From IMG/VR virus record IMGVR_UViG_3300037189_004920, positions 1 to 64,000 of that record: a stretch of DNA of 64,000 nucleotides; one strand, written 5' to 3'. Positions 10,419-61,458 of the stretch are shown here, in pieces. Made by a program: the position numbers and the translations under genes. How positions within the stretch are numbered: position 1 is the stretch's first letter; every line of letters begins with the position of its first letter. Origin of the DNA: a virus. The notes beneath the pieces are model-generated. The model searched no databases, was not told the origin of the DNA, and saw only the letters and a program-made list of their open reading frames with translations.

Positions 10419-11597
10419 ATGAAGTATATTGAAGATTTTGTACAACTCTTTGCCATTGGCCAAATACACCTAAGCACATTTGATGAAAAAATTGCTAGTA
10501 GCCTTGGCTGGCAATGTGTTGAGAACAAAGCATTTACTCAAAAACAGGCAGAAATTGCATTACGGTTGCTGAAAAAATATAAAAAGCAATTTCTTGCACT
10601 TGGTCATCAAAATATTGAACTTTTTATTGACACTCCTGTGTACAAACATGCACTTAGAGTGATTGATAATCAAAGTGCAGTCACCCTTGATTACAAAGAT
10701 CAAAAATTTAGAGTTAAATTTCCGTTTAACCAAGAATTAGTCACAAAAATTCGCCAATTTTCGTCAAAAACACATTTGACGAAACCTAATTGGGATCCTG
10801 AAACTAAAACTTGGCAGTTTGATCTAAATGAAAAAAGTTTAGAATTTATTTTTAATGAACTACTTCCTTTAAAATTTGAAGTTACTGATGAAATATCAGA
10901 AATATTGGAAAAATACCAAAAAATTAAGGAAAATTTTGAAGATTATGTTCCCATGCTAATCAAGCATCATGACACTTATTGTTTTAAAAATATAAAATCT
11001 AATTTTAGTTCCACTGACTTGACTAGTGCATTAATTGAAAGTGTAAAATTAGCAGTAAGTGTTTACGATGACCAAATTTATGAAGAAATTGGCGTAGTTG
11101 GCACTGAATATCCAATATACAATATTTTTAAGCAACACGAAAAACAAAATTTTGTGTTACCAAAAGAAAAATATTCACGCACACAAATTTTGCACTTCAT
11201 GAAAGATATGGACACAATCAATGTAATTTTCCTTCATGAAAATGCCACCGCAGAAACGCTAAAAAACTGGATTTTTGACCTAGAATCGTGTGGTATAAGT
11301 TTAAGTGATGTCGCTGTTTTGTTTAGACAAAATAACGAAGGTCAGGGTGTTGAATTCAACAGCGTAGTAAAAAGTTATAACCTAAATAAGTCTACACAAG
11401 ACAATGTAAAGTGGATATTTTTAGGTGGGAAATACCCAAAAAGTTTAGTAAAAAATGAAAAAATTGCAAATATTTGTTTGTTTGAAAACCAGTATGTGTA
11501 CACACATCATACCATACAAAGTGTCATGAAAAACTCAATTTTTAATTTTGCTCACAACGAACATACAAAACAAGGAGATGGATTTGTCGTCTTGTAA
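10419..11597 (+). CDS. HARP-like domain protein preceding UvsW
   Basis: A 392-residue protein. Residues about 92-135 read FRVKFPFNQELVTKIRQF followed by PNWDPETKTWQFDLNE, which resembles the HARP domain of SMARCAL1-type annealing helicases (basic/hydrophobic strand, then N-x-D-P-x-T-x-x-W). I see no Walker motifs, so it has no obvious helicase core. The gene overlaps the start of UvsW, itself a branch-migration helicase. I infer a DNA-structure-recognition partner of UvsW. The rest of the protein is Lys/Asn-rich and unassigned. Leaderless transcription is likely from the promoter at 10383-10411. Confidence 0.7.
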   Translation: MKYIEDFVQLFAIGQIHLSTFDEKIASSLGWQCVENKAFTQKQAEIALRLLKKYKKQFLALGHQNIELFIDTPVYKHALRVIDNQSAVTLDYKDQKFRVKFPFNQELVTKIRQFSSKTHLTKPNWDPETKTWQFDLNEKSLEFIFNELLPLKFEVTDEISEILEKYQKIKENFEDYVPMLIKHHDTYCFKNIKSNFSSTDLTSALIESVKLAVSVYDDQIYEEIGVVGTEYPIYNIFKQHEKQNFVLPKEKYSRTQILHFMKDMDTINVIFLHENATAETLKNWIFDLESCGISLSDVAVLFRQNNEGQGVEFNSVVKSYNLNKSTQDNVKWIFLGGKYPKSLVKNEKIANICLFENQYVYTHHTIQSVMKNSIFNFAHNEHTKQGDGFVVL

Positions 11598-13038
11598 AAT
11601 AGTATTAAAAGATGAAGTCAACGTAAAAATTGAAGGTTTAGATTTAGACACTAGGAAAAAATTAGTGTCAATGTTTAAGTACGAGTTGCCCTATGCAAGA
11701 CACATGCCTGCTTTTAAATTAGGCAGATGGGATGGTACTGTTAGCTTTTTTGGTCTAGGCGGAACTACATATCTAAGCATGTTAGATAGGGTATTACCTG
11801 AGTTAGAAAGCAGAGGATTTGACATTGATTTAGAAGACTTACGTAATCCAACTAAACTTGAATTTGAAAAAGTCACTGAGACATATTGGGCAGACAAAGG
11901 AAAAGTTTGGCCTAAAGGTCACGTTAAAGAAGGTGAGCCAATTTTATTGCGTGACTATCAACCAGATGCAATTAATAGATTTTTAGAAAATCCGCAAAGC
12001 ATACAAGAACTAGCAACTGGTGCTGGTAAAACAATTATGACTGCTACCATGAGTCATATGTGTGAAAAATATGGACGCACAATTGTTATTGTTCCAAACA
12101 AAGGACTTGTTGAGCAAACTGAAGAAGATTATATCAACGTTGGATTAGATGTTGGTGTATACTATGGTGATAGAAAAGATTTAGACAAGACGCATACGAT
12201 TTGTACTTGGCAAAGTCTTAATATACTTGAGAAAAAAGGCAAAGAACTTGACGATGCAATGAAATTGATTGAGTTCATTGAAGGTGTAGTGTGCGTTATT
12301 GTTGACGAAGTACACATGGCTAAAGCAGATGTGTTAAAAAATTTGCTAACAGGAGCATTTGCACATTGCCCAATACGTTGGGGACTAACTGGCACAGTTC
12401 CTAAAGAAGATTTTGAATTTGAAGGTATCAAATGTAGTTTAGGCCCAGTGGTTGGTGGTATTTCTGCTCATGCATTACAGGAAGCAGGTCACTTGGCCAA
12501 TTGCCACGTTAACATAATTCAAACTCAAGAATGGAAAGAGTTTGGTGGTTATGCTGAAGAATTAAAATATCTAGTCACTGATAGCGACCGATTAACTTAT
12601 GTTGCTAATCTTATTAGAGTAATGTCTGAAACTGGAAATACCCTAGTATTAGTTGACAGGATTGAATGTGGCAAGCAATTGAGTGCTCACTTAGATTGTG
12701 TGTTTATTAATGGCAACGTTAAGACCACTGATAGGAAAGAACACTATGATGAAGTTCGAGAATCAGATGATAAGATTATTGTTGCCACATATGGTGTAGC
12801 TGCCGTAGGTATTAACATTCCAAGAATCTTTAATCTAGTTTTAATTGAACCTGGAAAGAGTTTTGTTCGAGTTATTCAAAGTATTGGTCGTGGCATTAGA
12901 AAAGCTGAAGACAAAGACTTTGTACAAATTTGGGACATAACTGCAAGTACCAAATACGCAAAAAGACATTTAACGGAGCGTAAAAAATACTACAAAGAAG
13001 CAAAATATCCGTTTACAATAGACAAGGTGAAATATTAA
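11578..13038 (+). CDS. uvsW: UvsW, superfamily 2 DNA/RNA helicase
   Basis: UvsW unwinds R-loops and branched DNA and in T4 drives the switch from origin- to recombination-dependent replication. From ATG 11578 the N-terminal domain contains FKLGRWDGTVSFFG (46-59), as in T4 UvsW; Walker A ATGAGKT is at 146-152; the DEVH box is present (VIVDEVHMA); motif VI is QSIGRGIRKAE. The start is ambiguous: AAGGAG abuts ATG 11578 directly, lies 6 bp before an in-frame TTG at 11584, and an in-frame TTG occurs upstream at 11548. The 5' end overlaps the HARP-like gene by 20 bp. Confidence 0.93.
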   Translation: MDLSSCKIVLKDEVNVKIEGLDLDTRKKLVSMFKYELPYARHMPAFKLGRWDGTVSFFGLGGTTYLSMLDRVLPELESRGFDIDLEDLRNPTKLEFEKVTETYWADKGKVWPKGHVKEGEPILLRDYQPDAINRFLENPQSIQELATGAGKTIMTATMSHMCEKYGRTIVIVPNKGLVEQTEEDYINVGLDVGVYYGDRKDLDKTHTICTWQSLNILEKKGKELDDAMKLIEFIEGVVCVIVDEVHMAKADVLKNLLTGAFAHCPIRWGLTGTVPKEDFEFEGIKCSLGPVVGGISAHALQEAGHLANCHVNIIQTQEWKEFGGYAEELKYLVTDSDRLTYVANLIRVMSETGNTLVLVDRIECGKQLSAHLDCVFINGNVKTTDRKEHYDEVRESDDKIIVATYGVAAVGINIPRIFNLVLIEPGKSFVRVIQSIGRGIRKAEDKDFVQIWDITASTKYAKRHLTERKKYYKEAKYPFTIDKVKY

Positions 13039-13845: not shown

Positions 13846-14290
13846 TATCAAAAAAGAATTGCACGGTGTTGACATGCGAGATAAAGACATGTACAACAAC
13901 CTTACAGAAGAAGAACGTAAGTCATTTAGTCCTTACATACTAATGCGATATGTTAGTAATGTGCAAGGTGATAATGATGTTCAAGAATGGTTTGTTGAAA
14001 TGACTAACGAGCTGGTCAACAAGCATCATTGGAAACTTAGTAAGAATCACAAAGGTTTACTATGGAAATTGTTTGCTGGATGTGGTACTGGTGCAAAGGC
14101 ATATCATCCATATCTAGCTGCCGGCAAAAAAGAAAAAGCAGTTAAAATTGAAAAATTAATTGCTGAACTTAATCCAGCAATGAAGATGGATGAAGTAAAA
14201 TTATTGACAAGTTTAATGACTAAGGATGACATTGAAAATCTGTTTAACCAGTTGGGGTACGACAAAAAGCAACGCAAGGAATATGAGTAA
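13835..14290 (+). CDS. 62: Clamp-loader small subunit (gp62-like)
   Basis: In T4, gp62 with gp44 loads the gp45 sliding clamp. This 151-residue protein has the family's start (a short charged helix, then SFSPYILMRYVS), a middle with HHWKLSKNHKGLLWKLF, and a C-terminal half with repeated Lys/Glu/Leu helices (KIEKLIAELNPAMKMDEV) ending in a basic tail. Similarity is by pattern only and length is a little below T4 gp62 (187). gp44, gp45 and the gp43 polymerase are not in the window and must lie elsewhere if present. Confidence 0.6.
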   Translation: MALDIKKELHGVDMRDKDMYNNLTEEERKSFSPYILMRYVSNVQGDNDVQEWFVEMTNELVNKHHWKLSKNHKGLLWKLFAGCGTGAKAYHPYLAAGKKEKAVKIEKLIAELNPAMKMDEVKLLTSLMTKDDIENLFNQLGYDKKQRKEYE

Positions 14291-14963
14291 CTATACGTGT
14301 GTTCACTGTGGCAAGGGATATACCAAAGAAGCAACTTTGGTGGCCCATATGTGTGAGCAAAAACGTAGGGCATTGCAACGAGATGAGAAAAGAGTGCAAG
14401 CTGGATTTATGACTTATAATAGATTTTATAAGTTGACTCAAAATTCTAAAAAAGATAAAACGTATGAAGATTTTTGCAAAAGCCCATACTACAATGCGTT
14501 CGTTAAGTTTGGTAGTTTTGTTAATAACGTTAATCCTATCTATCCTGACAAGTTTGTTGATTACGTTATCAAAAGTGGAGTTAAGCTCGATCACTGGTGT
14601 AGAGATGAATTATATTATACCTATCTATCCGAAATGATTAAAATTGAGCCAGTAGACTCTGCAATACAAAGATCACTTAACACTATGATGGAATGGGGTG
14701 ATGAGCAAGATGCAAATTTTGCACATTACTTTAACTATGTTAACATTAATCGTTCAGTTAGACACATTGCTGATGGATTGATTAGTCCTTGGCTGTTATT
14801 AAATTGTAACAGTGGAAAAGATATGCTGGCTAAATTTAACGACGAGCAATTGAACATTGTGTCTGATATTATAGATCCTACATATTGGATGAAAAGATTT
14901 AAAACATATCCTAGTGAAATTGCACTTGTAAAAGAAATTTGTAAAGAAGCAGGAATAACATAA
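14283..14963 (+). CDS. Conserved zinc-finger protein of aquatic T4-like phages
   Basis: From ATG 14283 the 226-residue protein begins with a short zinc-finger-like motif: CVHCGKGYTKEATLVAHMC (C5, C8, H21, C23). The rest is helical with conserved-looking stretches YNRFYKLT, SPYYNAFVKFGSF, DHWCRDELYYTYL and ISPWLLLN. I recall this family beside the mini-PolIII-like gene in many uncultured aquatic phages, always of unknown function. It overlaps the gp62-like stop by 8 bp and its own TAA overlaps the next ATG (TAATG), so the pair is probably co-translated. A DNA-binding partner of the downstream palm-like protein is a reasonable inference. Confidence 0.75.
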   Translation: MSNYTCVHCGKGYTKEATLVAHMCEQKRRALQRDEKRVQAGFMTYNRFYKLTQNSKKDKTYEDFCKSPYYNAFVKFGSFVNNVNPIYPDKFVDYVIKSGVKLDHWCRDELYYTYLSEMIKIEPVDSAIQRSLNTMMEWGDEQDANFAHYFNYVNINRSVRHIADGLISPWLLLNCNSGKDMLAKFNDEQLNIVSDIIDPTYWMKRFKTYPSEIALVKEICKEAGIT

Positions 14964-15550
14964 TGCCAGATATTGACATAGACTTTTTTGATAGAGATTC
15001 AGCACTAAAGCTAATCAAGCACGTGCCAGCGAGTCGTATTGAAAATGGTACTGTTAAAAAGCACAATACTGGAGTATATTGTACTTCTATCCCGTACGAT
15101 TCTGTAACAGGACTTGCCAGTATAGATTATGAAGAAGCTGAAGATCGTGGCTATTTTAAAATAGATTTTTTGAATGTGTCAATTTATAAAGACATTACTA
15201 GTGAACAAGAAATTGATCAATTACTGGCTGTTGAACCTCTTTGGGACTTGTTAGAACAAAAAGAGTTTTGTGATTTGATATTTCATATCAATGGATATCA
15301 TTCATTAGTTGCTCAGGTAAAACCTAAAAATATAGAGCAGTTGGCCATGTTATTGGCACTGATTAGACCTGGAAAGCGTCACCTTGTTTCAAAGGTAGAA
15401 CGTGAGGGTTGGGATAGTATTAAAGATGAGATTTGGGTTAAAACTGAAGATGAATATAGTTTTAAGAAAAGCCACGCAATTGCCTATGCACATGCTATTG
15501 TGGTACAAATGAATAATATTTGTAAAGCAATTAGTTACGGATTTTCCTAA
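14963..15550 (+). CDS. Miniature DNA polymerase III alpha (C-family) palm-like protein
   Basis: The 195-residue protein opens with PDIDIDF, the hallmark motif of bacterial DNA polymerase III alpha, giving candidate catalytic aspartates D5 and D7. It continues with KKHNTGVYCTSIP (compare the KHAGGVVIAP block), then GYFKIDFLNVSIY, which fits the VKFDFLGL motif carrying the third catalytic Asp (D68). LLEQKEF..LIFHINGY, LAMLLALIRPG and FKKSHAIAYAHAIVV follow in the same order as the PolIII blocks FQLES, ALVALFRPGPL and FNKSHSAAYA. PHP, most fingers, and the C-terminal beta-binding and OB domains are absent (usual length above 1,100). Whether it polymerises is unknown. Confidence 0.8.
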   Translation: MPDIDIDFFDRDSALKLIKHVPASRIENGTVKKHNTGVYCTSIPYDSVTGLASIDYEEAEDRGYFKIDFLNVSIYKDITSEQEIDQLLAVEPLWDLLEQKEFCDLIFHINGYHSLVAQVKPKNIEQLAMLLALIRPGKRHLVSKVEREGWDSIKDEIWVKTEDEYSFKKSHAIAYAHAIVVQMNNICKAISYGFS

Positions 15551-15917
15551 CACTACGAACAAGTTGAATACTTTTTCGTTTAACTCTTTTTTCTGCTATT
15601 TCATTTAGATTAACAATTGGCCCAAATACTAAAACAATATCCTTGCTATTAATTGTTTTGATATATCTTCGGTAGTTTTCAAGCTCACCTTTTAAGAATA
15701 TATTGATAGGTATTTTTCGATTGCTTTCCCACCACCATTGTTCGCCAAGATCCAGAAGACCTTGTTTTTCAATGTCGTTGTGAATTGCGCCCAGATCATA
15801 GATGCTTAGGACGCTGTCGTTTTGATTGATAACTATGCCCACTATCTCCAGTTCGTTGCAACGAACGCAGGTTAAAAATGGGAATGTCTGTTGTAATGTA
15901 TTTGTTATGTCGTTCAC
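15531..15917 (-). CDS. Conserved hypothetical protein, leftward
   Basis: A 128-residue protein with a GTG start (the only early candidate). The sequence DLGEQWWWESNRKIPINIFL followed by a basic segment EKRVKRKSIQLVRSVRK resembles a family I recall in aquatic T4-like phages; no function is known. The N-terminus has a CxxC-like pair (CVRC). It overlaps convergently by 20 bp with the palm-like gene. The upstream end lies against a rightward structural gene, with a late TATAAATA box on the minus strand at 15949-15956. Confidence 0.65.
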   Translation of the reverse strand: MNDITNTLQQTFPFLTCVRCNELEIVGIVINQNDSVLSIYDLGAIHNDIEKQGLLDLGEQWWWESNRKIPINIFLKGELENYRRYIKTINSKDIVLVFGPIVNLNEIAEKRVKRKSIQLVRSVRKIRN

Positions 15918-16926: not shown

Positions 16927-17910
16927 ATGAGTCTTTTACAGACAGAACTACTATCATACCTACCTTTTAAAAGAAAACAAACGTCCAGTGGTTGGACTAG
17001 TTTTGATGCTCCTTGCTGTGTTTATAATGGCGAGAGTGCAGACACTAGACAGCGTGGTGGATTTATCAGTCACGGCGGTGGTGGATTCAGTTATCATTGT
17101 TTTAACTGTGGGTTCAAGACCAGTTGGCAACCAGGCAGACAGATTAGTGGCAAAAATAAAAAGTTTTTCAAATGGGTTAATGTACCTAGTAGTAAAGTCA
17201 ACGAATGGAGTTTAGAAGCTCTTAAACTTTTAGACAATGGGTCAACCAATCAAGTTACATTCAAGGACTTTGAAGAAGTTGCTCCTCCTTTAGATTCAAT
17301 GCCATTAGCAGAAGCAATATTAGAACACGACGAAGCAATCAAATGCTTAGAGTATCTATTAGAGCGTGGACACACTTTAGAAGATTACAATTGGTTGTAC
17401 AGTCCAATGCCAGGCTATAAAGATAGATTGGTCATACCCTTTTATCATAGTAAGAAGTGTGTGGGCTACACTGCTAGGAAAGTTGTACCAGGTAGTCCAA
17501 AATACCTAAGTGAAAATCAAACAGGCTATGTGTTTAATGTTGATAATCAAAAATACACTAGCAAGGTGGTTTTTGTAACAGAAGGCCCATTTGATGCTCT
17601 AGCCATTGGTGGTGTAGCCATACTCACAAACTTGCCAAATGAACAACAAAAAGCTATAATTAATAGTCTAGGCAAGACAGTAGTAGTAGTTCCTGACAGA
17701 GATCATACTGGCATGGGATTTGTTAAAGAAGCTATGGAAATGGGATGGCTTGTGGCAATACCTGAATGGGAAGAAGATATCAAAGATGCTAGTGAAGCAT
17801 TTAAGCGTTATGGCAGACTGTTTACCATAAAGACAATTTTAGATACAGCTACAGATAACAAAGTAAAATTGGAACTACTGATGAAACGTTATCCAAAGGA
17901 AATTAAATGA
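16927..17910 (+). CDS. 61: DNA primase (gp61/DnaG type)
   Basis: It synthesises RNA primers for lagging-strand replication. The N-terminal zinc-ribbon region has C30/C31 and HCFNC (C58, C61). The Toprim domain has the Glu motif VVFVTEGPFDA (E219) and the DxD motif VVVVPDRDHTG (D257, D259). At 327 residues it is close to T4 gp61 (342). Its ATGA stop/start overlaps the next small gene, and the helicase follows, giving a primase-helicase operon. Confidence 0.93.
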   Translation: MSLLQTELLSYLPFKRKQTSSGWTSFDAPCCVYNGESADTRQRGGFISHGGGGFSYHCFNCGFKTSWQPGRQISGKNKKFFKWVNVPSSKVNEWSLEALKLLDNGSTNQVTFKDFEEVAPPLDSMPLAEAILEHDEAIKCLEYLLERGHTLEDYNWLYSPMPGYKDRLVIPFYHSKKCVGYTARKVVPGSPKYLSENQTGYVFNVDNQKYTSKVVFVTEGPFDALAIGGVAILTNLPNEQQKAIINSLGKTVVVVPDRDHTGMGFVKEAMEMGWLVAIPEWEEDIKDASEAFKRYGRLFTIKTILDTATDNKVKLELLMKRYPKEIK

Positions 17911-18106: not shown

Positions 18107-19558
18107 ATGCAAAAAACAAACTATACTACTGAAATGCAACGACTTTACTTGGAAATGTTTCTAAGTGATGCAGAGACTTTTGTACGTTGCCAAAACATTT
18201 TTGATGCTGAAAACTTTGACCGCAAACTTAAAGATGCAGCCGAGTTCATTAACGGCTATGTGGACAAGTATAAGGTCATGCCTGAACTGGACATTGTTAA
18301 TACCAGTTGCAGTACAGACTTTAAAGATGTGACTGGATTGCCAGTAGAAAACTATGATTGGTTGTTAGATGAATTTGAACAGTTTAGTAGACACAAAGCT
18401 CTAGAACGAGCAATTATTAAAAGTGCTGACATGCTGGAAAAAGGAGACTTTGGTCCAGTAGAAGCCATGATTAAGGCAGCGGTACAAATTAGTCTTAACA
18501 AAGACATGGGTACAGATTACTTTGAAGATCCTAAAGGTCGCTTGATGGGACTCAAAGATAAGAACGGGCAAGTCAGTACTGGCTGGCCCACATTTGATAA
18601 AAAATTATTTGGTGGATTTAATAGAGGCGAGCTGAATATATTTGCAGGTGGTTCAGGTGCAGGTAAGAGTTTGTTTTTACAAAATTTAGCCATAAACTTC
18701 AGTCAAGGCGGACTAAACGTATTGTACGTTAGTTTGGAATTGAGCGAACAATTGGTAGCCATGCGTTTGGACAGTATGATGACTGGCTTGCCCACTAGAG
18801 AAATTTTTAAGAACATCGATGACGTAGAACTCAAAGTTAAAGTTGCAGGTAAAAGTCAAGGAGCCATACAGGTCAAATACTTGCCATCGGGCAAGAACGT
18901 TAATGACCTTAGAGCCTACATAAAAGAATATCAAGTGAAAAAAGGTCACAAGCCTGATGTTGTGCTCATTGACTATTTGGATCTAATGATGCCGATCAGT
19001 GTCAAGATCAGTGCAGAAAACTTGTTTGTCAAAGACAAGTATGTGAGTGAAGAAATTCGTAACTTTGCCATGGATACCAAGTGTGTATGTGTAACAGCGT
19101 CACAGTTGAATCGTAGTGCTGTGGAAGAAATTGAATTTGATCACAGTCATATTTCAGGTGGATTATCTAAAATCCAAACAGCTGACAACGTGATTGGCAT
19201 CTTTACAAGTCGTGCTATGCGTGAACGTGGACGCTATCAAATACAGTTTATGAAGACACGTTCAAGCAGTGCTGTGGGACAGAAAATTGACTTGGACTAT
19301 AACTTGGACAGTTTACGCATTACAGATCCAGGTGAAGAGGGAGATGCCCCACAAGCCAGCTTTGGTCAGGGTGGTGGTCGTGCGCCTAGTACAGGGGCAA
19401 CTAGCATATTAGATGGATTGAAAAAGACTTCTACTGTGATGTCTAACGAAGAAGCTCGTGAACCCGATGACGGCATTGCTGTGGGTAAGGTACGTGCTAA
19501 AACTGATACCAGCCGCATTAGAGACATGCTGGCTAATTTGAACAGCGAACGAGATTAA
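18107..19558 (+). CDS. 41: Replicative DNA helicase (gp41/DnaB family)
   Basis: A hexameric 5'-3' helicase. The N-terminal helical domain (1-130) is followed by a RecA-like ATPase with Walker A AGGSGAGKS (180-188) and Walker B PDVVLIDYLD (283-292). SQLNRSAVEE and a SGGLSKIQTADN segment are typical of DnaB/gp41 motifs. The C-terminus is Gly/Ser-rich and charged. The 483-residue length matches T4 gp41 (475). Its TAA overlaps the TAA of the leftward AlgH-like gene in a shared TTAA. Confidence 0.95.
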   Translation: MQKTNYTTEMQRLYLEMFLSDAETFVRCQNIFDAENFDRKLKDAAEFINGYVDKYKVMPELDIVNTSCSTDFKDVTGLPVENYDWLLDEFEQFSRHKALERAIIKSADMLEKGDFGPVEAMIKAAVQISLNKDMGTDYFEDPKGRLMGLKDKNGQVSTGWPTFDKKLFGGFNRGELNIFAGGSGAGKSLFLQNLAINFSQGGLNVLYVSLELSEQLVAMRLDSMMTGLPTREIFKNIDDVELKVKVAGKSQGAIQVKYLPSGKNVNDLRAYIKEYQVKKGHKPDVVLIDYLDLMMPISVKISAENLFVKDKYVSEEIRNFAMDTKCVCVTASQLNRSAVEEIEFDHSHISGGLSKIQTADNVIGIFTSRAMRERGRYQIQFMKTRSSSAVGQKIDLDYNLDSLRITDPGEEGDAPQASFGQGGGRAPSTGATSILDGLKKTSTVMSNEEAREPDDGIAVGKVRAKTDTSRIRDMLANLNSERD

Positions 19559-20115
19559 CTCATCCAGTCGCTGACTGCGCTACGGGCACTGAGCTCCACG
19601 CTGGCCCGCCAAAGATCCATGCCAGTTAGACCAAAGAGTACTTCATGGTCTGCTGGCGCCACTAGCCAACTGTGTTCTTTGTTCCAAGGCTCTTGCCCAG
19701 ATATTTCGCCCTCCAGCTGACCCGGTGCCCAACTGCAAGTGCCCAGTATGAGCCTATACTGTTTGGGTATGTTGCCTGCCATGAGCTCACTGATAAAGCC
19801 CATGTCACTGCTCACAGACAAGCCTGTACCACTGTGCTGTGTTTCCATGGTACTGACATCAGGGGTGTGTAAAAAATGCAAGCTGGTACTGTTAATAGGA
19901 CCCCCGGCATGCACTTCCCCAGGCAAGTCCAATTCAATGTTGACCCTCTTGAGTATGTCAGTATTGGTCACGCTCACAATGGGCTTGTTGACCACCATGC
20001 CCCATGCTCCTGTGCTGGTATGGCTGTTGATATAGATCACGGTGTTGTTGAATCTGCGGTCCAATATCTTGGGTGGTGCTACTAGCAGTTGTCCAGTTAG
20101 GTTTTGTATGTTCAT
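19555..20115 (-). CDS. yqgE: AlgH/YqgE (UPF0301, DUF179) family protein
   Basis: The 186-residue protein has the family's length (about 187) and signatures: LTGQLLVAPPKILDRRFNNT, WGMVVNKPI, GGPINSTSLHFLHT, and ILGTCSWAPGQLEGEI. AlgH/YqgE is a widespread proteobacterial protein whose biochemical role is unsettled; AlgH has been linked to regulation in Pseudomonas. It is transcribed leftward, converging on the helicase with overlapping stop codons. A TTAAATAT box on the minus strand at 20120-20127 almost touches the ATG, suggesting late, leaderless expression. It is unusual in a phage replication block and was probably acquired from a host. Confidence 0.9.
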   Translation of the reverse strand: MNIQNLTGQLLVAPPKILDRRFNNTVIYINSHTSTGAWGMVVNKPIVSVTNTDILKRVNIELDLPGEVHAGGPINSTSLHFLHTPDVSTMETQHSGTGLSVSSDMGFISELMAGNIPKQYRLILGTCSWAPGQLEGEISGQEPWNKEHSWLVAPADHEVLFGLTGMDLWRASVELSARSAVSDWMS

Positions 20116-38041: not shown

Positions 38042-38102
38042 AAGTGTTGATCTCGGACAAATAAAATTATAACTATACTTAATTATCACAAAGAAATTGA
38101 CA

Positions 38103-38690
38103 ATGCTTACACTCTGGTTCCCCACAGCAATACTTGATGCAGAATACCCACAGCATGAAAAGCTCAAACAGCATCTTGAACCACTCGTGCTAGCCCGTGT
38201 GGGTAAGAATCCCACAACACAAGATTGGATAGGCAACGTGCCCAACAGTTTTAATCTTTGGAACCCCTTGAACACTGATGACGGCCCAGTGCAGGAGTTT
38301 GCCCATTGGGTTGAAGAACAAACTAACGAGCTGGCATTTAAAATGGGCAGTATGAATCAGTTTATGATTGGGGAGGCTTGGGCCAATGTGTATGGTCCAG
38401 GAGATTTTCAAGAAAGTCACTATCACCCAGGGTGGCATTTTAGTGCTGTTTACTTTTTAACAGCGCCTGAAGGTAGTGGCAGTCTAAAGTTTGAAAGTCC
38501 CCTACTACCAGACATGTTGCCCTTGGACACTATGACACACAATGAACTCAGTAATCAATCAGCTTCATACACACCCCTTGAAGGTAGTCTAGTGGTATTT
38601 AGAAGTAGCCTGCGTCATGGAGTATACCCCAACCAATCCCAGTTGCCTAGAATATCGCTAGCCATGAATTTATGCAAGGTTAGACGCTAA
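38103..38690 (+). CDS. 2OG-Fe(II) oxygenase (PF13759-like)
   Basis: A 195-residue protein from ATG 38103. The family block is EAWANVYGPGDFQESHYHPG (candidate ligand H121/H123 region) followed by HFSAVYFLTAPEGSGSLKFE, SLVVFRSSLRHGVYPNQS (distal His) and RISLAMNL (2OG-binding Arg). This matches the putative 2OG-Fe(II) oxygenase family common in T4-like aquatic phages. The target is unknown. It is the first gene of a late block with fibres. Confidence 0.87.
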   Translation: MLTLWFPTAILDAEYPQHEKLKQHLEPLVLARVGKNPTTQDWIGNVPNSFNLWNPLNTDDGPVQEFAHWVEEQTNELAFKMGSMNQFMIGEAWANVYGPGDFQESHYHPGWHFSAVYFLTAPEGSGSLKFESPLLPDMLPLDTMTHNELSNQSASYTPLEGSLVVFRSSLRHGVYPNQSQLPRISLAMNLCKVRR

Positions 38691-43666: not shown

Positions 43667-43912
43667 ATGCTATATAAAGAACTTGCTAACAAACATATCA
43701 AACTACCAAGTAAAGGACAAGTGGAAATTGACGCTGGAGATGGCGTTATTCTTGTCCCTTTGAACGACGGTAAAATATTCCTAAATTGGCTCAATGACAA
43801 AGGGCAGATTATAGCTACACATACTTTAAGATTCAGTACTCAAATTGAACGCCGTGTTCGAATTATTAATTCTGAATCTAAAGAAATAACGCTATTGCAA
43901 ATTACTCTATGA
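43667..43912 (+). CDS. Small hypothetical late protein
   Basis: An 81-residue beta-rich protein (LPSKGQVEIDAGDGVILVPL, KIFLNWLNDKGQIIATHTLR). Not recognised. The ATGA overlap couples it to the following oxygenase gene. Confidence 0.66.
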   Translation: MLYKELANKHIKLPSKGQVEIDAGDGVILVPLNDGKIFLNWLNDKGQIIATHTLRFSTQIERRVRIINSESKEITLLQITL

Positions 43913-44424
43913 TAGAGTCTATATATCTAACGCAAGTAAAAGATTTAAATTTACTTGAAGACCTGTGTCAAGAATTACTATCAATACTTGATCAAGACTT
44001 ATCTAGAACTCCTGTTGATCATCCTATTACATTTAACAATAGTGATATTTTTATAATGGATAGTACAATTATAAAAAAGTTTATCAAAGAAGTTGTTGAG
44101 CCTGAATTTGAAAAATATGTAGATGTGCATTACAATAAAAAACTTAGTGAACTTAAACACTATTATAAGTCTTGGGTAGCAATGTATACCAATGGTAGAC
44201 ATCAGCCTATTCATAATCATCCTAGCAGTACCATAAGTTCAGTGATATACCTATTGTCTAATAATGAAGGTGGTGAGATAGAATTTATAGAAGATACCGC
44301 AACATTATTACATGCCCCTGTTACAGGAGACTTTGTAATATTCCCTAGTAGACTTCATCATGAAGTAAAAAAGTACAACGGCAGACTGCGTTTGGCATTG
44401 CCTGTTGATTTATATATTATATGA
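43909..44424 (+). CDS. 2OG-Fe(II) oxygenase-like protein
   Basis: A 171-residue protein. WVAMYTNGRHQPIHNHPSST contains the proximal His motif; ISSVIYLLSNNEGGEIEF, TGDFVIFPSRLHHEVKKY (distal His) and the final RLRLALPVDLYI strand complete the fold of the PF13759-type oxygenase. Substrate unknown. It is coupled upstream and downstream by ATGA overlaps to two other genes. Confidence 0.85.
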   Translation: MIESIYLTQVKDLNLLEDLCQELLSILDQDLSRTPVDHPITFNNSDIFIMDSTIIKKFIKEVVEPEFEKYVDVHYNKKLSELKHYYKSWVAMYTNGRHQPIHNHPSSTISSVIYLLSNNEGGEIEFIEDTATLLHAPVTGDFVIFPSRLHHEVKKYNGRLRLALPVDLYII

Positions 44425-45050
44425 TTAACCTAGAAAACTATTTTGAAAAGGGATTTGATATTACACAGTTAACTCCTGACTTTGTGACCAAGTTGTGGCA
44501 AATAGTTTATACGACAGAATGGATAAACGATGAGTCAGGGTATAAGGCCAAACCAGACTGGTATCAAACTAAAGATATTTCTAATGTTAATAACAGTCGC
44601 ATTTACCAAGGCAAAATAGAACGAGAGTACGGTAAAGAATTATTAAACAACAGTCCAACAGCTATAACAGACATTGCTCAAGATGTCATAAATTCCAATT
44701 TTTTTAGTCCGTTGAGAGTTTTTAAAACCAATACTGAACTAAAATACGTTCATCTTTGGAATGGTGCAGAGGACATATCTTGGCACAGTGATGCAATTGA
44801 TGGTTCAGATATGTTAATACTCGTATATCTAACTGAAGAAATAAAATGGGATAATAACTGGGGTGGCTGTATTGAAATTGCCAAAGATATTAATAATGAA
44901 AAACGTTATCAAACAATGGTACAACCATTAAGTGGTAATATGGTTGTGATAAACAATGCCAATCCACTAGTCAAACATCGAGTTCACGCACTCACTAATC
45001 AAACAGTTAACCGATACACATTCAACATGTGTTTCAATTGGTTAAGTTGA
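44421..45050 (+). CDS. 2OG-Fe(II) oxygenase-like protein
   Basis: A 209-residue protein. HLWNGAEDISWHSDAIDGSD supplies the H-x-D pair, then MLILVYLTEEIKWDNNWGGC, and PLSGNMVVINNANPLVKHRV supplies the distal His. It ends RYTFNMCFNWL. It is similar to the 2OG-Fe(II) family with a WHxD motif and differs clearly from the neighbouring oxygenase, so the pair are not recent duplicates. It overlaps the upstream gene (ATGA). Confidence 0.84.
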   Translation: MINLENYFEKGFDITQLTPDFVTKLWQIVYTTEWINDESGYKAKPDWYQTKDISNVNNSRIYQGKIEREYGKELLNNSPTAITDIAQDVINSNFFSPLRVFKTNTELKYVHLWNGAEDISWHSDAIDGSDMLILVYLTEEIKWDNNWGGCIEIAKDINNEKRYQTMVQPLSGNMVVINNANPLVKHRVHALTNQTVNRYTFNMCFNWLS

Positions 45051-48706: not shown

Positions 48707-49366
48707 ATGAAAATTAGACGAAATAGTGAGCGTGGCTATATTCCTCACAGCAGACTAGGCGAAGATAACTTTGAAAGCTATCGTAGTTTTAGTTTTGAAG
48801 GCTACCAAGATCCCAAGTACGATTGCTGGGGTCCTATTAGAACAATTAACGATGATAGAGCACAACCTGGATTTATTACCAGCCATCACGAACATGTGGG
48901 TTTAGATATTCTAAGTTATGTAGTACGAGGTCAGGTGCATCATAAGGATAACTTGGGCAACGAACTTCAAGCACAAGAAGGACAAGTACAATGGATGAGT
49001 TGTGGTACAGGCATTTGGCACACAGAAGGAAACACTAGTGACAAGCCTAACCGTTACTTACAAATATGGATCATGCCCAATAAGATTGCTCCAGTGTGGC
49101 AACCTAAATATGAATTAATAACTCGACCAGCTGGGTTTGCCAAGTTGCCTTTACAGTTACAAAACACAGAGCTAGAAGTGTGGGCTGGCAACTTAGATTG
49201 TTACATGGATATTGTTAACAGTTATCTATTGGTATTAGAAGGAAGCATTCGTGTAGGAGATACTATACTTACAGAAGGAGATAGTATTGATACAGAAGGC
49301 GACTATGTTACTGTGGAGCCAATAGGAACACCACACCTACTACTGTTTGAACTACACTACAATTAA
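48707..49366 (+). CDS. Pirin-family protein (YhaK-like)
   Basis: A 219-residue bicupin-type protein. [20 protein letters not shown] supplies H61 and H63, and [13 protein letters not shown] supplies H105 and E107: the four-ligand metal site of pirin, with the same relative spacing. [20 protein letters not shown] lies between. The C-terminal half has a second beta region. Pirins are metal-binding proteins, some with quercetinase activity. The phage substrate is unknown. The stop overlaps the ALAS stop, TTAA. Confidence 0.88.
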
Positions 49367-50553
49367 AACATTGTTTTAAGAGCTTTAACCAAATCCTCAA
49401 TCATTCCATCATCGTGAAACGGAGTAGGCGCAAAACGTAAACGCTCTGTCCCCACAGCCACAGTAGGATAGTTGATTGGCTGCACATATATGTTGTGCTC
49501 GTTTAGTAATGCATCACTCATGGCTTTACACTTCTTAGCATCTCCCACTAGCACAGGAACAATATGTTCTGTAGCACAACTCATAACTTCAATACCAGCA
49601 ACACCTAAACGATGTTTTAGTTTACGAGCACGTTCTTGATGCTTCTCACGTATCTCATTGTGATCTTTAAGATACTTAACAGCCGCTAGAGCGCCTGCAC
49701 AACTAACTGGGCTCATACTGGTAGTAAAGATAAAGCCAGCTGCCACACTACGAATCGCATCACACACTACGGAGTCGGCAGCAATATAGCCGCCCTGTAC
49801 TCCAAATGCCTTGCCCAGTGTACCATTTATGATATCTATTTCAGATTCTAGTCCAAGCTCTTCAACTTTGCCACCGCCATGTTGTCCATATAAACCAACA
49901 GCGTGAACTTCATCAATATAGGTAATGGCTTTGTATTTTTTAGCAAGGCGGCATATTTCTTTAATGGGACTAACATCGCCATCCATGCTGTAGACACTTT
50001 CAAAAGCAATGCATGGTGTATTTCCTTGTGCAAAACTAATTTTAAGTTTCTGTTCTAAATCTTCTAAGTCGTTGTGTTTGAATACAACTTTCTTGGCTCG
50101 ACTATGACTCATGCCCACAATCATACTGTTGTGGTTATTTTCATCACTGATATATTCTATGTTGGGTATAATTTTAGCAAGAGCAATAAACGTCCATTCA
50201 TTAGCAACATAGGCACTACTGAAAAGCAGTGCTTTGGGTTTCTTATGTAACTGAGCAAGTTCGTATTCAAGGGCCACGTGATAGTGACTGGTCCCGCCAA
50301 TATTGCGGGTGCCGCCTGATCCTGCCCCAGTATGATCTAAGGCGGTGTGCATGGCATCTAGCACAACTTTGTGCTGTCCCATGCCCAAATAATCATTTGA
50401 ACACCAATTAACTATGTTTTTAATGTTGTAAGGCCCGTACCAAATGGCTGTGGGGAATTTGCCCGCCTCACGCACAATGTCATTAAACACGCGGTATTTG
50501 CCCGTTTCTTTTAGGCTTTCTATCAGGTCTTGAAAAGGTTGCTTGTTAATCAT
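49363..50553 (-). CDS. hemA: 5-Aminolevulinate synthase (ALAS, Shemin pathway)
   Basis: It condenses glycine with succinyl-CoA to 5-aminolevulinate, the first precursor of haem and other tetrapyrroles. The 396-residue protein is complete and matches ALAS rather than other alpha-oxoamine synthases throughout: [72 protein letters not shown], and the PLP lysine in [16 protein letters not shown] (K248), with R21 also present. It is leftward, divergent from a tail gene, with a TTAAATAA box at 50560-50567 touching the ATG. No other haem gene is in the window. Confidence 0.97.
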
Positions 50554-59247: not shown

Positions 59248-59703
59248 GTGATAGCAACGCATACTAATCCCGTTAGGTGCGTTCAATTAGCAGTACCCGA
59301 AGGTCTTGCGGCACGTATTCAACAACAGCGTGAATTGACGCCGCGAGATCGTGATGGCAGAGGCTGGCAAAGTTATCCAACTACTGACCAGCCTTTTGTT
59401 TGGTTTGACTCAGTATATCAAGCAGTGGAGGCTGAACACGGTGCCATAGACACTTGGTGGTTTAATGTAAACACACTGGGCGAATACACCAACTGGCACG
59501 CTCACCATCGCTGGGCCAAGGTAGCAGTATTGTATGTTACTGTGCCTGGCGGTGATATAGAGTTTAGGCAGGGCGGAGCATATTGGCGTGAAACTCCTCA
59601 AGCAGGGGACTTATTTGTTTTCTCTGGAGAGTTAGATCATAGAGTCTTGCCCAACCCTAGCGAACAAGTTAGGATCAGCGTAGCATTTAACTTTAAGAAT
59701 TAG
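59248..59703 (+). CDS. 2OG-Fe(II) oxygenase-like protein beside the fibre gene
   Basis: A 151-residue protein with a GTG start. WWFNVNTLGEYTNWHAHHRW gives the proximal His motif; KVAVLYVTVPGGDIEFRQGG, TPQAGDLFVFSGELDHRVLP (distal His) and NPSEQVRISVAFNF (2OG-binding Arg) follow. This is the same fold pattern as the oxygenases near 38 and 44 kb, in a shorter form. It follows the fibre stop by 2 bp, so they are co-transcribed. Its stop overlaps the QueC-like stop. Confidence 0.8.
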   Translation: MIATHTNPVRCVQLAVPEGLAARIQQQRELTPRDRDGRGWQSYPTTDQPFVWFDSVYQAVEAEHGAIDTWWFNVNTLGEYTNWHAHHRWAKVAVLYVTVPGGDIEFRQGGAYWRETPQAGDLFVFSGELDHRVLPNPSEQVRISVAFNFKN

Positions 59704-60290
59704 CGTATTGCCTGTTCACGTAGTTTAACACACGTATCGCACTTCCCACAAGGTGCGATATTTTTTTCACTGTACACCGGACGCCTACAACTCCAAAATA
59801 TATTACGCAATGTATCTGGTAAGCTATCGTAGATTTCACGCTTGGTCATTGTCATTACTGGATAGATTTTACCCACATCAGTAAATGCCGCTAATATTTT
59901 GTCAGCACGTTTACGGCGGTCTTCTAGTGCTAGATTATAATCATTTGCCTGCATGCCTAGAGCAACTTTTACTATATCAGGATTCGCAGAACAAATATAG
60001 CCAGCAAAGAAGTTAAGTGTATCTGAATCAAAAAGAAACTTGTTGCCGTAAGGTTGTGTGCCTATTTCGCTTTCACTATAGTCAAAAGTAAAACCCAATC
60101 GTTTGAGTTCTTTTAGAGCCATGTCAACAGCAATCTTTTCTGCCTGTGCCCTATTCTCCACATTACGATTGTGTATGTGATGTATGTGTAACCGATAGTC
60201 TCGGTATTCAGGATCTGTAAGCAACTTGTACGTCATGCCTAGGCTGTCAAGTCCGCCCGAGTACATGGCTAAGATTGTTTGTTGTTCCAT
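59700..60290 (-). CDS. queC: QueC-like 7-cyano-7-deazaguanine synthase / PP-loop ATPase
   Basis: A 196-residue protein. The PP-loop SGGLDSLGMTYKLL (11-24) and the Cys cluster WSCRRPVYS, then APCGKCDTCVKLR (C167, C180, C183, C186) match QueC, the ATP-dependent enzyme making preQ0. It is shorter than typical QueC (about 220-230), and a domain central to substrate binding may be reduced. In phages QueC can feed queuosine in tRNA or 7-deazaguanine DNA modification, but no other gene of that pathway is in the window. It overlaps the upstream methyltransferase-like gene. Confidence 0.82.
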   Translation of the reverse strand: MEQQTILAMYSGGLDSLGMTYKLLTDPEYRDYRLHIHHIHNRNVENRAQAEKIAVDMALKELKRLGFTFDYSESEIGTQPYGNKFLFDSDTLNFFAGYICSANPDIVKVALGMQANDYNLALEDRRKRADKILAAFTDVGKIYPVMTMTKREIYDSLPDTLRNIFWSCRRPVYSEKNIAPCGKCDTCVKLREQAIR

Positions 60291-60753: not shown

Positions 60754-61458
60754 ATGGAACTAATATTAATAACTCTCTTAATGACACACATAACGATAGT
60801 GTCAGTCACACTGTACCTACATCGTTGCCAAGCACATAGGGGAGTTGAATTTCACCCCGTAATTAGCCACTTTATGCGTTTCTGGTTATGGCTCACAACT
60901 GGCATGACAACTAAGCAATGGGTTGCAGTACATCGAAAACATCATCAGACCACCGACGTTGAAGGTGATCCACACAGTCCGCATATATTTGGCATTAAGA
61001 CTGTAATGACTACAGGTTGGTTATTATACAACACTGCATGTAAGGATGCCGACTTTGTCATGAAATACGGCATGGGCACACCTAAAGACTGGATTGAACG
61101 CAAACTATATCAACCACATCATAAGTTAGGTATTCTTTTAATGTTGGCTATTAATCTAGCATTGTTTGGACCGTGGGGATTGCTAGTATGGGGAGTGCAG
61201 ATGGTCTGGATTCCATTCTGGGCCGCTGGTATGATTAACGGACTAGCACATTGGTGGGGATATCGCAATGGAGAAACTAAAGACTTTAGTCGTAACATTA
61301 GCCCTATTGGTATTGTGGTAGGAGGCGAGGAACTGCATAACAATCATCATTTAGACCCAGCAAGTCCAAAATTTAGCCGTAAGTGGTTTGAATTTGACAT
61401 AGGTTGGATGTATATCACTGTCTTATGTAAATTAAGATTGGCAAAATTAAAAGGTTAA
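60754..61458 (+). CDS. Fatty-acid desaturase (delta-9 type)
   Basis: A 234-residue membrane enzyme with the three histidine boxes of the di-iron desaturases: HRCQAH (23-28), HRKHH (60-64) and HNNHH (195-199). The boxes alternate with hydrophobic segments, as expected for acyl-CoA/acyl-lipid delta-9 desaturases, which insert a double bond into membrane fatty acids. It is smaller than many bacterial relatives (about 280-320) but has every ligand box. It is expressed from a late TATAAATA box, almost leaderless, and diverges from the MTase/QueC pair. Confidence 0.94.
   Translation: MELILITLLMTHITIVSVTLYLHRCQAHRGVEFHPVISHFMRFWLWLTTGMTTKQWVAVHRKHHQTTDVEGDPHSPHIFGIKTVMTTGWLLYNTACKDADFVMKYGMGTPKDWIERKLYQPHHKLGILLMLAINLALFGPWGLLVWGVQMVWIPFWAAGMINGLAHWWGYRNGETKDFSRNISPIGIVVGGEELHNNHHLDPASPKFSRKWFEFDIGWMYITVLCKLRLAKLKG

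What the first reader, a model, noticed from the sequence alone, without database searches (positions are those of the whole stretch)
14963..15550. A 195-residue DNA polymerase III alpha palm-like protein
The protein keeps the PDIDIDF motif, the third-aspartate motif (KIDFL) and downstream PolIII blocks in the right order, but lacks the PHP, most of the fingers, and the C-terminal domains. Candidate catalytic Asp are D5, D7 and D68. It is unclear whether it acts alone, pairs with another polymerase, binds the clamp or host PolIII subunits, or has another activity such as primer handling. The companion zinc-finger gene overlaps its start codon.
Basis: partly seen in the sequence, partly recalled or inferred. 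Interest (0 to 1): 0.82.

Follow-up and report, generated by a model that had tools for sequence, protein, structure and literature searches.

The report
Half of a split phage polymerase
This small phage protein is one half of a stripped-down bacterial-type DNA polymerase that giant T4-like phages encode in two separate genes; the kind was described in 2021, but what it does beside the phage's own main polymerase is still unknown.

Summary
In detail: 14963-15550 encodes a 195-residue homologue of the palm and inner fingers of bacterial DNA polymerase III alpha (DnaE). AlphaFold2 gives a confident model (pLDDT 91.9); its 14 best structural matches are all DnaE/PolC (best Z 10.0, 191 of 195 residues; next unrelated Z 3.2). 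The metal-binding aspartates are D3, D5 and D68 (E. coli D401, D403, D555), not D5, D7 and D68; all are invariant in 105 sequences. It is not a stand-alone enzyme but the C-terminal half (phrog_11778) of a two-gene minimal polymerase. The N-terminal half (phrog_11127) carries the GRGS triphosphate motif and stops where this protein starts: the halves map to E. coli DnaE 278-395 and 400-781. All 12 isolate genomes and 3 contigs over 250 kb checked with this half also carry the other; the 64.8-kb window contig, a fragment, does not. Iyer et al. 2021 (PMC7824862) described this split minimal polymerase, so this is a new member of a known kind. Thumb, PHP, clamp-binding regions and the R390 and R709/R710 arginines are missing. 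All 13 genomes tested also have a B-family polymerase. I favour an accessory primer-extension or gap-filling role, unproven.

The parts
14963..15550 (+). C-terminal half of the split minimal DNA polymerase III alpha (195 aa, phrog_11778)
   Evidence: phrog_11778 E 1.3e-66; AF2 pLDDT 91.9; structural matches all DnaE/PolC, Z up to 10.0
14966..14986 (+). PDIDIDF motif, residues 2-8; metal ligands D3 and D5 (E. coli D401, D403)
   Evidence: D3, D5, D7 invariant in 105 sequences; alignment to E. coli DnaE
15158..15172 (+). KIDFL motif, residues 66-70; K66 (E. coli K553) and third metal ligand D68 (E. coli D555)
   Evidence: K66 and D68 invariant in 105 sequences
15365..15376 (+). RPGK, residues 135-138 (E. 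coli RPGP 639-642); the Pro-to-Lys change at 138 is invariant in the phage family
15461..15490 (+). FKKSHAIAYA, residues 167-176 (E. coli FNKSHSAAYA 756-765), with H171 (H760) and Y175 (Y764)
14283..14963 (+). C2HC zinc-finger protein (226 aa, phrog_11058), conserved upstream neighbour and candidate DNA-binding partner
   Evidence: found upstream in 163 loci; C6, C9, H22, C24 invariant; partnership is inference
15531..15917 (-). Convergent small gene (phrog_11637, unknown function), 3' end overlaps the C-half
   Evidence: same arrangement in 165 loci; phrog_11637 E 1e-29
16927..17910 (+). DnaG-type (T4 gp61-like) DNA primase
   Evidence: phrog_47 E 2.9e-34; downstream of the C-half in 146 loci
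18107..19558 (+). DnaB-like (T4 gp41-like) replicative helicase
   Evidence: phrog_19 E 7.3e-76; downstream of the C-half in 122 loci
11548..13038 (+). UvsW-like helicase, upstream end of the conserved block (longest ORF; true start may be later)
   Evidence: phrog_16 E 1.3e-74; upstream in 126 loci

Best explanation
The protein is the C-terminal subunit of a two-subunit, minimal C-family (Pol III alpha-type) polymerase of large T4-like phages. It supplies the metal-binding strands (D3, D5, D68), K66 and the inner fingers with H171. The separately encoded N-terminal subunit supplies the rest of the palm, including the GRGS loop that in DnaE binds the dNTP triphosphate. The two should join along the cut palm to form one active site. 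Lacking thumb, clamp-binding and PHP parts, the complex is unlikely to be the replicase, and these genomes carry a B-family polymerase for that. Its place beside primase and helicase, with the other half beside the clamp loader, suggests a fork accessory that makes short DNA extensions at primers or gaps before the B-family enzyme takes over, as B. subtilis DnaE does for PolC. Shown: homology, fold, tiling of the two halves on DnaE, invariant catalytic residues, co-occurrence, neighbourhood. Inferred: physical association, catalysis, primer or gap role. I put the identity part (C-half of a split minimal Pol III alpha) at about 0.95 and the accessory polymerase role at about 0.5; the single figure below is for the whole statement.
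For: Family and fold. Invariant D3, D5, K66, D68, H171 in 105 C-halves and GxGRGS in 93 N-halves. Tiling: N-half residues 77-178 on E. coli DnaE 278-395, C-half residues 1-192 on 400-781. Co-occurrence: N-half once in 12 of 12 isolate genomes and 3 of 3 contigs over 250 kb; C-half in 8 of 10 N-half contigs of at least 200 kb. Correlated trees, Mantel r 0.68, 0 of 2000 permutations. B-family polymerase in 13 of 13. Primase, helicase and UvsW beside the C-half, gp44-like clamp loader downstream of the N-half in 81 of 87 loci. Purifying selection. Same pairing published (PMC7824862).
Against: No thumb; E. coli R390 equivalent is Glu/Asp in the N-half and the R709/R710 segment is deleted, so dNTP binding must differ if it polymerises. 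No interaction or activity data. Co-inheritance and shared neighbourhood are expected of any core genes of one phage lineage. The primer role rests on gene position and analogy only. The N-half was not found on the window contig, which is a fragment.
Confidence: 0.5

Rival explanations
1. The two halves form an active nucleotidyltransferase that is no longer a template-directed DNA polymerase: it transfers a nucleotide to a primer end, a protein or a small molecule, using the retained metals and GRGS loop without a thumb.
For: Metal ligands and GRGS kept, but thumb, R390 and R709/R710 lost, and new invariant residues gained (K138, W158).
Against: The inner fingers and the NKSHAxAYA helix that cover the incoming dNTP in DnaE are kept, and the neighbours are replication genes.
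Confidence: 0.22
2. The halves form a catalytically inactive scaffold or regulatory subunit of the phage primosome or clamp loader.
For: Position between UvsW and primase-helicase, and beside the clamp loader; loss of several substrate-binding parts.
Against: All three metal ligands, K66, H171 and GRGS are invariant over large divergence, which a scaffold would not need.
Confidence: 0.15
3. The C-half acts without the phage N-half, by docking onto the host Pol III holoenzyme (hijack or inhibition).
For: It is homologous to host DnaE; the window contig itself shows no N-half.
Against: It has no clamp-, tau- or PHP-equivalent region; complete genomes always carry the phage N-half; these phages have their own replicase.
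Confidence: 0.06
4. It is a decaying remnant or an assembly artefact of a full-length DnaE.
For: Small size relative to DnaE.
Against: Same length and ends in hundreds of contigs and in 63 isolate records, dN/dS well below 1, conserved neighbourhood.
Confidence: 0.01

Closest known systems
Split minimal DNA polymerase III alpha of 'group 2.2' jumbo phages (Iyer et al. 2021, PMC7824862; here phrog_11778 + phrog_11127)
   Same: Same two-gene arrangement with distant genes, same division into an NTP-binding N-terminal part and a metal- and template-binding C-terminal part, alongside a B-family polymerase; the window protein is a member of the C-terminal family over its full length.
   Different: From an uncultured phage, at most 52% identical to isolate homologues in the tblastn list; its partner gene lies outside the 64.8-kb contig. 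That the published group is the same as the PHROG families is my reading of the text; the paper's accessions were not checked.
Bacterial DnaE / PolC (C-family DNA polymerase, E. coli Pol III alpha)
   Same: Palm fold, three metal-binding Asp, K553, H760, RPG and NKSHAxAYA elements in the same order.
   Different: Only E. coli 400-781 equivalents with large internal deletions; no thumb, PHP, LRRAMGKK segment, rest of fingers, clamp-binding, OB or tau-binding region; GRGS half in another gene.
Cyanobacterial split DnaE (dnaE-n / dnaE-c with split intein; own knowledge)
   Same: A DnaE encoded as two separate genes.
   Different: No intein sequence at either end here: the N-half stops at EFLK and the C-half begins at (M)PDIDIDF, so no trans-splicing is expected; the cut lies inside the palm.
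B. subtilis DnaE as lagging-strand primer extender (PMC5627055)
   Same: Works like: a second polymerase that would extend primers and hand over to the main one (analogy only).
   Different: Full-length enzyme with thumb and clamp-binding parts; partner is PolC, not a B-family polymerase.

Membership tests
Phage split minimal Pol III alpha, C-terminal half (phrog_11778) | Full-length match to the family profile | tested here: met
   E 1.3e-66, residues 3-188 of 195 to profile 8-193 of 197
Phage split minimal Pol III alpha, C-terminal half (phrog_11778) | Separate N-terminal half (GRGS) encoded at a distance in the same genome | tested here: inconclusive
   Met in 12 of 12 isolate genomes and 3 of 3 large contigs of relatives; not found on the window contig, which is a 64.8-kb fragment
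Phage split minimal Pol III alpha, C-terminal half (phrog_11778) | Accompanied by a B-family polymerase | tested here: inconclusive
   Met in 13 of 13 relatives' genomes; not determined for the window's own incomplete genome
C-family DNA polymerase (DnaE/PolC), canonical | Palm fold with three metal-binding aspartates | tested here: met
   AF2 model matches 14 DnaE/PolC entries, Z 6.5-10.0; D3, D5, D68 invariant
C-family DNA polymerase (DnaE/PolC), canonical | GRGS triphosphate-binding motif in the same chain | tested here: not met
   Motif lies in the separate N-half
C-family DNA polymerase (DnaE/PolC), canonical | Thumb domain | tested here: not met
   24-29 residues from D7 to H34 against about 107 in E. 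coli
C-family DNA polymerase (DnaE/PolC), canonical | Complete fingers with the LRRAMGKK segment | tested here: not met
   29-39 residues from K138 to H171 against about 119; no RR in that segment in 105 sequences
C-family DNA polymerase (DnaE/PolC), canonical | PHP domain and C-terminal clamp-binding, OB and tau-binding regions | tested here: not met
   The protein spans only E. coli 400-781 equivalents
C-family DNA polymerase (DnaE/PolC), canonical | Template-directed DNA synthesis | not testable with these tools
   Needs biochemistry

The most novel reading that the evidence does not exclude
A thumbless, two-subunit C-family enzyme with a rewired nucleotide pocket (R390 position made acidic, R709/R710 lost, new invariant K138) that works at the phage primosome, with the neighbouring C2HC zinc-finger protein as its DNA-binding part: either the smallest known C-family polymerase or a nucleotidyltransferase with a new activity.
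Probability: 0.3. Interest if true: 0.78.

Novelty: new member of a known kind. Interest (0 to 1): 0.48.

Why it matters
The split minimal Pol III alpha is present in every isolate and every contig over 250 kb of this lineage that I checked starting from this half, and in hundreds of environmental contigs, yet I found no report of its function. If the two halves make an active enzyme, it would be an exceptionally small C-family polymerase, cut through its active site, and would show how little of Pol III is needed for catalysis. It would also mean that these T4-like phages run two unrelated polymerases at one fork. The residue inventory and split point given here make this testable with two small proteins.

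Tried and rejected
Stand-alone enzyme: rejected because part of the palm (GRGS) is in another gene. Artefact or remnant: rejected on conservation. D5/D7/D68 as catalytic triad: rejected by alignment. Further DnaE pieces elsewhere in the genomes: PF17657 rings only inside the C-half (3 of 13) and PF07733 above its cut-off only in the N-half. Clamp (gp45, PF02916) search rang nowhere, controls included, so it says nothing. Later use of the N-half against phage records mostly picks up ordinary full-length phage DnaE at weak E-values; I did not look for an unsplit ancestor among them. A fused N+C sequence was not submitted for folding because the tool takes unchanged sequences only. The roles of R390, R709, R710, K553 and H760 in E. 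coli rest on my own knowledge; a paper search gave nothing usable. One alignment was too diverse for the genome scan.

Full report
What is there. ORF 14963-15550 (+) encodes 195 residues; its ATG overlaps the TAA of the zinc-finger ORF 14283-14963 by one base. The contig is a 64,815-base virus record, a fragment judging by the mostly 285-490 kb genomes of isolate relatives. The protein matches phrog_11778 over its length (E 1.3e-66) and phage DnaE phrog_405 over residues 48-138 (E 1.2e-7); Pfam DNA_pol3_finger is just under its cut-off. Sixty-three phage records carry a homologue with at least 80% coverage, all below 60% identity: RaK2, PBECO4, 121Q, GAP32, CBB, Atu_ph07, Phosso, PA5oct, Paride, SCTP-2, XacN1 and others.

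Residues. Aligned with E. coli DnaE (MG1655), D3, D5 and D68 correspond to D401, D403 and D555, K66 to K553, H171 to H760 and Y175 to Y764. In 105 aligned sequences D3, D5, D7, H34, G37, K66, D68, R135, P136, K138, W158, F167, K168, H171 and Y175 are invariant. The assignment agrees with the published catalytic pair D972/D974 of E. faecium PolC (PMC12592400), which falls on residues 3 and 5 in the structural match 9qpc (residue 2 to 971).

What is missing. D7 to H34 spans 24-29 residues against about 107 in E. coli, so the thumb is gone; K138 to H171 spans 29-39 against about 119, so the LRRAMGKK segment with R709/R710 is gone. The chain ends at the equivalent of about E. coli 781, before the remaining fingers and the clamp-binding, OB and tau-binding regions.

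Fold. AlphaFold2 on 105 sequences gives pLDDT 91.9 and pTM 0.81, with strands at 4-8, 21-27, 30-39 and 66-71. Foldseek's 11 best PDB matches are all Pol III alpha. In the VIA re-alignment 14 DnaE/PolC entries lead (Z 6.5-10.0, 176-192 residues aligned) and the first unrelated entry has Z 3.2.

The other half. Pectobacterium phage CBB gp328 (172 aa) was described as a truncated Pol III alpha (PMC5259590) and Atu_ph07 gp316 as an alpha subunit (PMC6102473). CBB gp328 ends in GLGRGSS...HLVDSIKYELDVNEFLKW and stops; Pfam DNA_pol3_alpha E 2.1e-8. The window protein begins at the next conserved motif. The AF2 model of a relative's N-half (pLDDT 91.0) matches DnaE/PolC with best Z 12.8, and its residues 77-178 align with E. 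coli DnaE 278-395; the C-half aligns with 400-781. The halves therefore tile the palm and inner fingers with a gap of a few residues. The first 76 or so residues of the N-half are unassigned and stand where DnaE has its PHP domain. Profile comparison with E. coli DnaE: N-half E 6.4e-6 at 323-395, C-half E 1.3e-4 at 529-642. In 93 N-halves GxGRGS is invariant, and the residue aligned with R390 is Glu (87) or Asp (6).

Co-occurrence. With the N-half profile, 12 of 12 isolate genomes and the 3 contigs of 259-345 kb each give one match; 5 contigs of 82-151 kb give none. Starting from N-half contigs, 8 of 10 of at least 200 kb carry the C-half and none of 5 shorter ones does; one 359-kb contig lacks it, perhaps because it is incomplete. 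Trees of the halves from 23 genomes correlate (Mantel r 0.68; 0 of 2000 permutations reach it). This shows co-inheritance, not binding. All 13 genomes searched also encode a B-family polymerase, and none shows another Pol III alpha piece above cut-off.

Neighbourhood. Around the C-half the order UvsW - small genes - zinc finger - C-half - convergent gene - primase - helicase recurs: zinc-finger gene in 163 loci (no match in XacN1 and RAS14), convergent gene in 165, primase in 146, helicase in 122, always on the same relative strands. The zinc finger is C2HC with its four ligands invariant. The N-half lies upstream of a gp44-like clamp loader in 81 of 87 loci.

Mechanism. The simplest reading is a heterodimer whose active site is shared across the cut: triphosphate loop from the N-half; metals, K66 and H171 from the C-half. 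That these residues are invariant argues for retained catalysis. The missing thumb, clamp-binding parts and arginines argue against a processive replicase, and the B-family enzyme fills that role. The position beside primase, helicase and clamp loader suggests short synthesis at primers or gaps; B. subtilis DnaE, which briefly extends RNA primers before PolC takes over (PMC5627055), is the analogy. Physical association, activity and role are inferred. A changed nucleotidyltransferase or an inactive scaffold remain open.

Novelty. Iyer et al. 2021 (PMC7824862, section 3.4.1; [quoted passage not shown] The window protein is a new member of that kind. What is added here is the exact split, the residue inventory of both halves, the systematic co-occurrence, and the zinc-finger neighbour. 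I found no later paper on its function in the library searched; that library lacks most subscription journals.

Noticed in passing
window 14283-14963 (+): C2HC zinc-finger protein (phrog_11058) with CxxC...HxC ligands invariant in about 160 homologues, almost always upstream of the C-half; function unknown, no fold predicted.
   Followed up: partly
window 15531-15917 (-): Convergent gene of unknown function (phrog_11637) whose 3' end overlaps the C-half; the arrangement is kept in 165 loci.
   Followed up: partly
C-half residue 138 (window 15374-15376) and N-half residue 173 (L164 7929-8462): RPGP of cellular DnaE is RPGK or RPAK with Lys invariant in 105 sequences, while the R390 position in the N-half is always acidic; perhaps a charge pair across the two halves. 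Distance not checked.
   Followed up: no
window 15533-15547 (last five residues, SYGFS): A short C-terminal tail S-Y-G-F/Y-S recurs in the window's close relatives, is absent in RaK2-like phages, and has low model confidence; it could be a docking peptide.
   Followed up: no
L002 7992-8567 (Atu_ph07, NC_042013.1): The RefSeq start of YP_009611739.1 (locus 8073) leaves out the catalytic IPDIDIDF strand; the open frame has an ATG at about locus 7992.
   Followed up: partly
window 49363-50553 (-): Phage-encoded 5-aminolevulinate synthase (TIGR01821 E 1.4e-170); such phage genes from aquatic sites have been reported (PMC11480375).
   Followed up: partly
window 19555-20115 (-): AlgH/YqgE-like protein (DUF179, PF02622 E 7e-30) in the replication region, next to the helicase.
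   Followed up: no
window 60754-61458 (+) and 59700-60290 (-): Fatty acid desaturase (PF00487 E 1.7e-13) and a QueC-like protein (PF06508 E 2.4e-6) near the end of the contig.
   Followed up: no
window 38097-38690, 44421-45050 (+): Two 2-oxoglutarate/Fe(II) oxygenase-like proteins by Pfam; 43909-44424 and 59248-59703 look similar by eye.
   Followed up: no
L203 (G010, 328-kb contig): The C-half profile match runs across one in-frame TAA; its position was not examined.
   Followed up: no
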